Origin: JAUWCW01 sp030609125 [NCBI: Candidatus Rokuibacteriota bacterium]
GTDB taxonomy: Bacteria; JAUVQV01
Length of the DNA stretch: 5,497 nt
Reading direction: 5' to 3'
Assembly (NCBI GenBank): GCA_030609125.1
Contig: JAUWCW010000156.1
Coordinates: forward strand, 1 to 5,497
The notes under the pieces are model-generated. The model was not told the origin of the DNA and made no database searches. It saw nothing but the letters and a program-made list of their open reading frames with translations. A program made the position numbers and the translations under genes. How positions within the stretch are numbered: position 1 is the stretch's first letter; each line of letters starts with the position of its first letter. Of this stretch, positions 2,360 to 5,497 are shown piece after piece.

Positions 2360-2373
2360 CCGGTGTCTTTTGG

Positions 2374-2378
2374 GGAGG
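2374..2378 (+). promoter_or_regulatory. Ribosome binding site that fixes the activator start
   Basis: GGAGG within GGGGAGGA (2372-2379) stands five bases before GTG 2384, an ideal spacing. The in-frame GTG at 2363 lies upstream of this site and next to the predicted -10 element. ATG 2396 is 17 bases from the site, which is too far. The site therefore favours GTG 2384. Confidence 0.7.
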
Positions 2379-2383
2379 AAAAA

Positions 2384-3928
<1,545 letters not shown>

Positions 3929-3946
<18 letters not shown>

Positions 3947-3967
3947 GTTTCGTACGGTCTTTCATAC
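3929..3967 (+). repeat. Three direct copies of TTTCRTAC
   Basis: TTTCATAC (3929-3936), TTTCGTAC (3948-3955) and TTTCATAC (3960-3967) lie in the same orientation. The first is inside the last codons of the activator gene and the other two are just after its stop. Relative to the predicted sigma-54 transcription start near 4105 they fall at about -176 to -138, a usual place for enhancer sites. The spacings of 19 and 12 bases are irregular, so chance is possible. Confidence 0.3.
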
Positions 3968-3981
3968 CAGAAAGTAGTTTT

Positions 3982-4001
3982 GGCGGCGCACGTCCGCCGC
4001 C
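3982..4001. repeat. GC-rich perfect dyad: candidate enhancer site or hairpin
   Basis: GGCGGCG (3982-3988) and CGCCGCC (3995-4001) are perfect inverted repeats around a 6-base centre. TTTT (3978-3981) before and AAAA (4004-4007) after could extend the pairing past a 2-base bulge. It sits 35 bases after the activator stop, and about -123 to -104 from the predicted sigma-54 start. No T-run follows on either strand, so it is a poor intrinsic terminator. Size and position fit an upstream activator sequence, but it does not match the NifA consensus TGT-N10-ACA or the NtrC consensus. Confidence 0.4.
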
Positions 4002-4025
4002 TGAAAACATCGTCGCTTCTGCAAG

Positions 4026-4058
4026 AATATCTTTCAATATCAGGAGGTTGCTGATATT
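4026..4058. promoter_or_regulatory. AATATC repeat/dyad containing a near-consensus IHF site
   Basis: AATATCAG (4036-4043) and CTGATATT (4051-4058) form a perfect 8-base inverted repeat with a 7-base centre. A further direct AATATC (4026-4031) lies exactly 10 bases, about one helical turn, upstream. Within the dyad, 4038-4050 matches the IHF consensus WATCAA-N4-TTR at 8 of 9 specified positions (TATCAG, four bases, TTG). The location, about -67 to -55 from the predicted start, is where IHF normally bends DNA between an enhancer and a sigma-54 promoter. The dyad could instead be an operator for another regulator. Confidence 0.45.
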
Positions 4059-4078
4059 TCTCCGCCGAATTCCCGGAC

Positions 4079-4094
4079 TGGCACCGTCTTTGCT
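4079..4094 (+). promoter_or_regulatory. Sigma-54 (RpoN) -24/-12 promoter of the amt gene
   Basis: TGGCAC (4079-4084), five bases, then TTGCT (4090-4094) fits the consensus TGGCAC-N5-TTGCW. The invariant GG (4080-4081) and GC (4092-4093) are separated by exactly ten bases. Transcription should start about 12 bases after the GC, near 4105, giving a leader of about 56 bases to ATG 4161. An activator with the GAFTGA loop is encoded directly upstream. Ammonium transporters are commonly induced through sigma-54 under nitrogen limitation, which fits. Confidence 0.85.
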
Positions 4095-4112
4095 CTTGGA
4101 AATGGCATTGCC

Positions 4113-4134
4113 GAAGCGGGCAGAAGCCCGTCTC
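4113..4134 (+). other. Hairpin in the predicted amt mRNA leader
   Basis: CGGGC (4117-4121) pairs with GCCCG (4126-4130) around an AGAA loop. A G-T wobble and two outer pairs beyond one mismatch extend the stem to 4113-4134. It falls eight bases after the predicted transcription start and ends 13 bases before the ribosome binding site. It might stabilise the 5' end. The sequence after it (CATCTTTGC) is too poor in T for a strong attenuator. Confidence 0.3.
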
Positions 4135-4147
4135 ATCTTTGCTCAAC

Positions 4148-4154
4148 GAGGAGG
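4148..4154 (+). promoter_or_regulatory. Strong ribosome binding site of the 33-codon frame
   Basis: GAGGAGG ends six bases before ATG 4161 and is the best ribosome binding site between the sigma-54 promoter and the Amt coding region. The Amt ATG at 4274 has only GGAG directly touching it, which is a poor spacing. This shows that translation of the transcript is meant to begin at 4161. Confidence 0.75.
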
Positions 4155-4160
4155 AAGAAA

Positions 4161-4262
4161 ATGACGGCCCGTATTGAAAAAGCCGGTTCAAGGATCGTTC
4201 CTTTGTGTTTCCTGGTGCTTTTCCTGCTGAGCGTGGCGGTCGCCACCTACGTCTCGGCCTGA
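4161..4262 (+). CDS. 33-residue signal-peptide-like frame: Amt leader separated by a frameshift, or leader peptide
   Basis: ATG 4161 follows a strong ribosome binding site and the frame ends in TGA 4260-4262. The product has a basic start (R4, K7, R11), a hydrophobic core (residues 12-28, including PLCFLVLFLLSVAVA) and an ending TYVSA, the layout of a Sec signal peptide with an AxA-like cleavage site. The Amt frame is open across this point and reads LSAAEMTTIDSG from 4259. One added C at 4258-4259 would fuse the two as VSA-LSAAEMTTID. Many bacterial Amt proteins, including E. coli AmtB, carry a cleaved signal peptide, so this is probably the true Amt N-terminus put out of frame. The alternative is a genuine small membrane or leader peptide coupled to Amt, whose ATG comes 11 bases after the stop. 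No slippery heptamer is evident at the junction. Confidence 0.6.
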   Translation: MTARIEKAGSRIVPLCFLVLFLLSVAVATYVSA

Positions 4263-4273
4263 GCGCAGCGGAG

Positions 4274-5497
4274 ATGACGACGATCGATTCGGGGGACACC
4301 GCCTGGGTCCTGATCAGCTCCGCCCTGGTGCTGCTCATGATACCGGGCCTCGCCTTTTTCTACGGCGGCCTGGTGAGAAAGAAGAACGTCCTCTCCATCC
4401 TGATGCAGTGTTTCATGCTGATGGGTGTCATCACCATCCAGTGGATTGTCGTCGGCTACACCCTCTCGTTTGGATCGGACATCGGCGGAGTCATCGGCGG
4501 CATGGACTTTTTCGGCATGAGAGGTGTCGGGATCGGCGCCAACCCGGACTTTTCCGAAACGATACCCCATCAGGCCTTCATGATCTTCCAGGCCATGTTC
4601 GCCATCATCACGCCGGCGCTAGTCATCGGCGCCTTCGCGGAGCGGATGAAGTTTGCCGCTTTCATCGTCTTCTCCCTCCTGTGGACTACGCTGGTCTATG
4701 ACCCGGTCTGCCACTGGGTCTGGGGGGGCGGCTTCCTCGGCAGCGACGGGGCCCTCGATTTTGCCGGGGGTACGGTGGTGCACGTCAACGCCGGAATGGC
4801 GGCCCTGGCGGCGGCGCTCGTTCTTGGCAAGAGGAAGAGCTATCCTGACAAGACGTCGCCTCCGCACAACCTCCCCTTCGCCGTCCTCGGGGCGGGACTG
4901 CTGTGGTTCGGGTGGTTCGGCTTCAACGCCGGCAGCGCCCTCTCCGCCGGAGCGCTGGCCGCCAACGCGTTTGTCGTTACCCACGTTGCCGCGGCCGCGG
5001 CCGGGCTCACCTGGGCCCTCCTGGACTGGCTGATCCACAGGCGCCCAACCGTTCTCGGCATGATTACCGGCGTAGTTTCCGGGCTGGTGGCGATCACCCC
5101 CGCAGCCGGCTTCGTAAACATCATGAGCTCCGTCTGGATAGGCATCGGATCGTCAGCGATCTGCTACTTCATGGTCATGGTCGTCAAGGAAAAGCTCGGG
5201 TTCGTCGATTCCCTCGATGACTTCGGTGTACACGGTGTAGGGGGGATCTGGGGGGCTCTGGCCACGGGGCTCTTCGCCACCACCGCGGTGAACGCCGACG
5301 GCGCCAACGGGCTCTTCTACGGAAACCCCGGGCAGTTCTTCGTCCAGATCAAGGCCGTTGTCGTGACGATCGTGTACTCCTTCGTGGTCTCCTTCCTCCT
5401 CCTCAAGCTGGTGGGGCTCTTCCTGCCCCTGCGTGCCGAGGACGAGGAGGAAAGGATCGGCCTGGACGTCACTGAGCACCGCGAAGCGGGCTACACG
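4274..5497 (+). CDS. amtB: Ammonium transporter (Amt/AmtB), 3' end cut by window edge
   Basis: 408 codons are seen without a stop. The product is an Amt-family ammonium channel, a trimeric inner-membrane protein with 11 membrane helices in the mature form. Counted from ATG 4274, key pore residues are present: twin histidines H170 (GGTVVHVNA) and H320 (DFGVHGVGG), phenylalanine gate F109 and F217, D162 in LDFAGG, W150 in VWGGG, W214 and S221 in WFGFNAGS. The early motif PGLAFFYGGLVRKKNVLS (24-41) is diagnostic. The C-terminus GLDVTEHREAGYT is the conserved tail that couples to the PII protein GlnK, and only a few residues should be missing. The start is uncertain. ATG 4274 gives a plausible signal-less protein but has a weak ribosome binding site, whereas the strong one serves the out-of-frame signal peptide at 4161. 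Expression is expected from the sigma-54 promoter at 4079-4094 under nitrogen limitation. A glnK gene is not visible but could follow. Confidence 0.93.
   Translation, partial: MTTIDSGDTAWVLISSALVLLMIPGLAFFYGGLVRKKNVLSILMQCFMLMGVITIQWIVVGYTLSFGSDIGGVIGGMDFFGMRGVGIGANPDFSETIPHQAFMIFQAMFAIITPALVIGAFAERMKFAAFIVFSLLWTTLVYDPVCHWVWGGGFLGSDGALDFAGGTVVHVNAGMAALAAALVLGKRKSYPDKTSPPHNLPFAVLGAGLLWFGWFGFNAGSALSAGALAANAFVVTHVAAAAAGLTWALLDWLIHRRPTVLGMITGVVSGLVAITPAAGFVNIMSSVWIGIGSSAICYFMVMVVKEKLGFVDSLDDFGVHGVGGIWGALATGLFATTAVNADGANGLFYGNPGQFFVQIKAVVVTIVYSFVVSFLLLKLVGLFLPLRAEDEEERIGLDVTEHREAGYT

What the first reader, a model, noticed from the sequence alone, without database searches (positions are those of the whole stretch)
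4148..4300. Amt signal peptide lies out of frame with the transporter by one base
Seen: a strong ribosome binding site and ATG 4161 open a 33-codon frame with perfect signal-peptide layout ending in VSA, then TGA. The Amt frame is open across the junction and reads LSAAEMTTID there. One more C in the GCC at 4257-4259 would give a continuous signal-peptide-bearing AmtB. Known: AmtB of E. coli and relatives has a cleaved signal peptide. Inferred: this is a frameshift mutation, a homopolymer sequencing error, a rare recoding site, or a real leader peptide translationally coupled to an Amt that starts at ATG 4274.
Basis: partly seen in the sequence, partly recalled or inferred. Interest (0 to 1): 0.6.

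Follow-up and report, generated by a model that had tools for sequence, protein, structure and literature searches.

The report
Ammonium transporter with frameshifted signal peptide
This is an ordinary bacterial ammonium transporter gene whose reading frame slips by one base between the signal peptide and the transporter, most likely an assembly slip or a recent mutation rather than a new kind of gene control.

Summary
In detail: ATG 4161 to TGA 4262 encodes 33 residues with signal-peptide layout behind AGGAGG, and the Amt frame is offset by one base and open across the junction. The signal peptide is real. It resembles the in-frame signal peptides of four of the closest Amts (L003, L004, L112, L220; 0 of 2000 shuffles reach any score), with mostly synonymous codon changes against L112. 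Among 110 relatives surveyed I saw no other such split. So the ancestral gene was a normal preprotein AmtB, and this copy differs by a net one-base shift at the signal peptide/mature junction. Programmed frameshifting has no support: no slippery heptamer, no stable fold. The same bin has other one-base indels (purA in a G8 run, no second copy found; a class V aminotransferase in a G10 run), so an assembly error is plausible, although this site has no run longer than two bases. The alternative is a recent real mutation, with Amt starting at ATG 4274 without a signal peptide; 50 of 110 relatives lack an in-frame hydrophobic start by a crude rule. Reads or a conspecific genome would decide; neither was available.

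The parts
2363..3946 (+). NifA-like sigma-54-dependent regulator (GAF, AAA+, Fis-type HTH) upstream of amt
   Evidence: PF01590, PF00158, PF02954; TIGR01817 nifA 556.9 bits, cut-off 528.85
4079..4093 (+). sigma-54-type promoter-like site TGGCAC-N5-TTGC
   Evidence: one exact match in the window, mean 0.01 in shuffles (1 of 200 had one). With two mismatches allowed there are 4 matches, no more than chance (3.66). No sigma-70-like site in 3900-4400. Function inferred
4149..4154 (+). Shine-Dalgarno AGGAGG, 6 nt before ATG 4161
4161..4262 (+). 33-codon frame: the Amt signal peptide, ending in VSA, then TGA
   Evidence: similarity to in-frame signal peptides of L004, L112, L003, L220
4251..4270 (+). 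Interval in which the one-base frame offset most likely lies (signal peptide / mature junction)
   Evidence: Signal-peptide frame matches relatives up to A33 (4257-4259), Amt frame from the linker on; bounds are my estimate
4274..5497 (+). Amt ammonium transporter, from possible start ATG 4274 to the contig end
   Evidence: PF00909 1-399/399; TIGR00836 467.6 bits, cut-off 343.3

Best explanation
It is an ordinary amtB-type gene under an apparent sigma-54 promoter. Its product was a preprotein with a cleaved signal peptide, in one continuous frame. In this assembled copy the frame is off by one base at the signal peptide/mature junction. I put about 0.5 on an assembly or sequencing indel (the living cell then has the continuous gene) and about 0.4 on a recent real mutation (the cell makes a 33-residue stub, and Amt from ATG 4274 by re-initiation). 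Shown: both frames, the similarity of the signal peptide to in-frame ones, their in-frame state in four of the closest relatives. Inferred: promoter use, cleavage, the cause, and the start used.
For: In-frame similar signal peptides in L003, L004, L112 and L220 (67-74% identical Amts). Ungapped 33-residue match to L004; 0 of 2000 shuffles for each of the four. In the 20 codons compared with L112, 7 are identical, 8 differ synonymously and 5 non-synonymously, so the frame was selected as protein. Other single-base indels in the same bin: purA, split in a G8 run with no second copy found, and a class V aminotransferase split in a G10 run. A precedent for error: passages of PMC2330054 list Vibrio fischeri ES114 amtB among its sequence corrections, as a frameshift.
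Against: The junction has no run longer than two bases, unlike the two proven indels. Only one genome of the species and one other of the phylum are held, so no close copy could be compared. Two further close Amts, L032 (70%) and L034 (67%), have in-frame hydrophobic N-termini that are not detectably similar to this peptide, and L033 (64%) has none by the rule, so N-termini change fast in this family. The site lies in the short linker where a real shift would be tolerated, which argues for real mutation over random error (inference).
Confidence: 0.88

Rival explanations
1. Real recent frameshift with a working gene: ribosomes translate the signal peptide, stop at TGA 4260-4262 and re-initiate at ATG 4274, 11 bases on, giving Amt without a signal peptide.
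For: 50 of 110 relatives have no in-frame hydrophobic start by a crude rule, many beginning just before GDTAW. The offset falls in the linker, where both halves survive. The site is not a homopolymer.
Against: ATG 4274 has no properly spaced Shine-Dalgarno (GGAG at spacing 0). The bin has other indels that are probably artefacts.
Confidence: 0.4
2. Assembly or sequencing indel; the organism has one continuous signal-peptide-bearing amtB.
For: purA, with no second copy found in this genome, has one extra base in a G8 run relative to the G001 copy; a class V aminotransferase is split in a G10 run. Both halves here look intact.
Against: The two confirmed indels lie in long G runs; this one does not. 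Of 17 checked frame switches none was shown to be an indel outside a homopolymer, though 6 of the 17 stayed unresolved.
Confidence: 0.5
3. Programmed -1 frameshifting joins the signal peptide to Amt.
For: Both frames overlap and are open from 4178 to 4259.
Against: No slippery heptamer in 4161-4262. Region 4240-4330 folds no better than shuffles, z 0.86, 167 of 200 at least as stable. A shift before the end of the hydrophobic core would spoil the signal peptide. Not seen in relatives.
Confidence: 0.04
4. An evolved, conserved leader peptide that regulates amt translation by coupling.
For: Strong ribosome binding site for the first frame and only 11 bases from its stop to ATG 4274.
Against: No such split seen among 110 relatives; the similar peptides are in frame. 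No Rfam match in 3940-4330.
Confidence: 0.04

Closest known systems
E. coli AmtB type ammonium channel with cleaved signal peptide
   Same: Amt family, N-terminal hydrophobic signal peptide before the first transmembrane helix; passages read (PMC3831643, PMC10433425)
   Different: Signal peptide is out of frame by one base in this assembly; scores below the E. coli AmtB equivalog cut-off (374.7 vs 657) but above the general amt model
Amt of the same-order genome G001 (L004, L112), of G030 (L003) and of G060 (L220)
   Same: 67-74% identity; similar signal peptide
   Different: Signal peptide and transporter in one frame
Amt proteins without signal peptide
   Same: What would be made from ATG 4274
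   Different: By my reading, those surveyed have no signal-peptide-like frame set against the Amt start

Membership tests
Amt/AmtB ammonium transporter | Full-length Ammonium_transp domain | tested here: met
   PF00909 1-399/399, 429 bits; TIGR00836 over cut-off
Amt/AmtB ammonium transporter | Signal peptide in frame (the AmtB-type subset) | tested here: not met
   Signal peptide present and similar to relatives', but in another frame
Amt/AmtB ammonium transporter | Ammonium transport activity | not testable with these tools
   Needs an experiment
Programmed -1 ribosomal frameshifting | Slippery heptamer X_XXY_YYZ in the upstream frame | tested here: not met
   none in 4161-4262
Programmed -1 ribosomal frameshifting | Stimulatory structure downstream | tested here: not met
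   z 0.86; no better than shuffles (no pseudoknot search was made)
Conserved leader peptide / upstream ORF | Same stop and split conserved in relatives | tested here: not met
   seen in none of 110 relatives (my reading); no congener available
Assembly or sequencing indel | Reads disagree with the assembled sequence | not testable with these tools
   No reads held; indirect evidence only

The most novel reading that the evidence does not exclude
The split is real and used: a separate 33-residue signal-peptide-like leader is made first and its termination at TGA 4262 couples translation to a signal-peptide-less Amt at ATG 4274, so that one mutation turned an Amt preprotein into a leader plus mature-type transporter that works and is kept.
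Probability: 0.12. Interest if true: 0.4.

Novelty: already known. Interest (0 to 1): 0.14.

Why it matters
Little in itself. The gene should be annotated as a signal-peptide-bearing Amt with a frame break, the peptide is not a new leader family, and this bin carries single-base indels that will make false split genes. If the shift were real, it would be a natural case of an Amt losing its signal peptide in one step.

Tried and rejected
Leader peptide: rejected because the peptide resembles in-frame signal peptides and no split was seen among the relatives surveyed. Programmed frameshift: no heptamer, no structure. A +1 shift at the TGA, as in release factor 2 (recalled), would lead to the third frame, not the Amt frame (read from the sequence). 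RNA element before amt: no Rfam match at E 0.1. Second Amt copy: none found in this 92%-complete genome.

Frameshift rate by tblastn between the two genomes of the order: only about 29 kb of the sampled sequence of the window's genome was covered at the set thresholds and the candidates were ambiguous, so I used a codon-usage segmentation plus Pfam instead.

Literature searches (7, 0 and 9 papers listed) showed nothing on a frame-split Amt signal peptide in titles or abstract starts. I opened passages of three papers only: PMC3831643, PMC10433425 and PMC2330054.

Full report
The window is one whole contig of 5497 bases from a 2.3-Mb, 376-contig genome, 92% complete by the tool's table. Only one other genome of its phylum is held, in the same order but another family.

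Anatomy. Genes in the window: a peptidase of family M48 (214-1059, +), a Memo-family / AmmeMemoRadiSam B protein (1045-2262, -), a NifA-like sigma-54 activator (2363-3946, +) and the Amt gene. Before the Amt gene there is an exact sigma-54-type site, TGGCAC-N5-TTGC, at 4079-4093: one match in the window, 0.01 expected. With two mismatches allowed, four matches are no more than chance. No sigma-70-like site was found in 3900-4400; one terminator-like hairpin at 4116-4131 is at chance level (1 found, 0.6 expected). Then come AGGAGG, ATG 4161, 33 codons and TGA 4260-4262. The Amt frame is open from just after the stop at 4175 to the contig end, and Pfam's Ammonium_transp model is matched end to end. 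One Amt was found in this genome.

Is the 33-codon frame the signal peptide of this Amt? Yes. The in-frame N-termini of two G001 copies and of G030's Amt are MEATAGKARSRLVPLIFLLIFLGVTAIASVVAA (L004), MRLRFFKVPLFFLVLFLLSVVLATVVAA (L112) and MKKLVTGFPFWFFVVFLAMVVYATHVSA (L003), each followed in frame by a short linker and GDTAW. The window's peptide aligns with L004 over all 33 residues without a gap (score 73), and with L112 (71) and L003 (50). None of 2000 full or 2000 region-wise shuffles reached these scores. G060's Amt (L220) also has its signal peptide in frame and scores 40, 0 of 2000 shuffles. In the 20 codons compared with L112, 7 are identical, 8 differ synonymously and 5 change the residue. 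These four Amts are 74% (L003), 74% (L220), 69% (L004) and 67% (L112) identical to the window's. They are not the only close ones: L032 (70%) and L034 (67%) have in-frame hydrophobic N-termini not detectably similar to this peptide (1047 and 365 of 2000 shuffles reach their scores), and L033 (64%) was classed as having none.

How general is the split? I surveyed 110 relatives: 29 loci, the best 80 of 592, and L112. They were not dereplicated. 60 have a hydrophobic in-frame N-terminus and 50 do not; with the window the script's tally reads 60 and 51 of 111. The rule is crude: hydrophobicity and starts within 75 codons, no signal-peptide predictor. Eight of the 50 (and seven of the 60) have some hydrophobic out-of-frame ORF nearby. 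By my reading none of these has a charged start, a core and a cleavage-like end set against the Amt start; L109's looks like the tail of an upstream Amt. L220 to L223 were fetched later and are not in that count. So Amt without a signal peptide seems a common natural form, while the split was seen in the window alone.

Recoding. No X_XXY_YYZ heptamer lies in the upstream frame; the best partial sites are in 4176-4184, before the hydrophobic core. The RNA 4240-4330 folds no better than shuffles (z 0.86). No Rfam family matches 3940-4330 at E 0.1. I reject programmed frameshifting.

Error or mutation? I sampled 60 further contigs of the same genome. With the window this makes 61 contigs and 388,503 bases, three of them N throughout; 339,782 bases were called coding. 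A codon-usage segmentation found 136 direct same-strand frame switches, of which 97 were explained by a start codon close to the stop and 39 were not. I checked 17 of the 39 with Pfam. 2 of 17 are frame breaks inside one family: purA (profile 1-250, then 253-416) and a class V aminotransferase (1-70, then 74-371). 9 of 17 are neighbouring genes of different families. 6 of 17 are unresolved, because one or both halves match nothing. The other 22 odd pairs and the 97 explained ones were not checked, so 2 is a lower bound. The purA break lies in G8, where the G001 copy is one base shorter, and the aminotransferase break lies in G10. No other purA copy was found in this genome, so at least that break is probably not true of the living cell (inference: purA is a core gene). 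The bin therefore contains single-base indels, which makes an artefact at the Amt junction plausible. But the longest run in 4240-4275 is two bases, unlike the two proven cases.

Against a random error stands the place: the shift falls in a stretch of roughly 25 bases, in a gene of more than 1300, where both halves survive. That is what selection would leave of a real mutation (inference, no test). If it is real, Amt would start at ATG 4274, 11 bases after the stop. That ATG has no well-spaced Shine-Dalgarno (GGAG at spacing 0), so translation would depend on re-initiation. I leave the two at about 0.5 (artefact) and 0.4 (real).

Literature. E. coli AmtB is made as a preprotein with a cleaved signal peptide, giving 11 helices with the N-terminus outside, and a haloarchaeal AmtB has no predicted signal peptide (passages of PMC3831643, and PMC10433425). 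In Vibrio fischeri ES114 a resequencing study lists amtB among its corrected sequences, marked as frameshift with a 3' extension (passage of PMC2330054), so an amtB frame break that was a sequence error has a precedent. Three searches listed nothing on a frame-split Amt signal peptide by title or abstract start; subscription papers are mostly absent from that library.

The thing is an ordinary signal-peptide-bearing Amt gene with a one-base frame break of undecided origin. Low interest.

Noticed in passing
L129:856-2155 (-), G000 contig 14: purA (adenylosuccinate synthetase) is split over two frames at a G8 run; no second copy was found in this genome.
   Followed up: yes
L175:2985-6270 (-), G000 contig 61: Class V aminotransferase split over two frames at a G10 run; its first part is in one open frame with a molybdopterin oxidoreductase, so a further frame break between the two genes, or a fusion, is possible.
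   Followed up: partly
L139, about 5866 (-): Frame switch at a C run of about ten in a long protein with a weak receiver-domain match; possible third homopolymer indel, not confirmed.
   Followed up: partly
L143:1879-3058 (-): Frame switch before an RF-1 domain protein; not resolved whether a release-factor frameshift site or two genes.
   Followed up: no
G001:C155:11820-31681 (L196, L197): Three long Amt matches and two Amt fragments (28980-29219, 29213-29362) within 20 kb in the same-order genome.
   Followed up: no
window:4116-4131: Terminator-like hairpin followed by CTCATCTTTG between the sigma-54-type site and the ribosome binding site; at chance level by the scan.
   Followed up: no
window:2363-4093: NifA-like activator directly upstream of an exact sigma-54-type site and amt, suggesting local nitrogen control.
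   Followed up: partly
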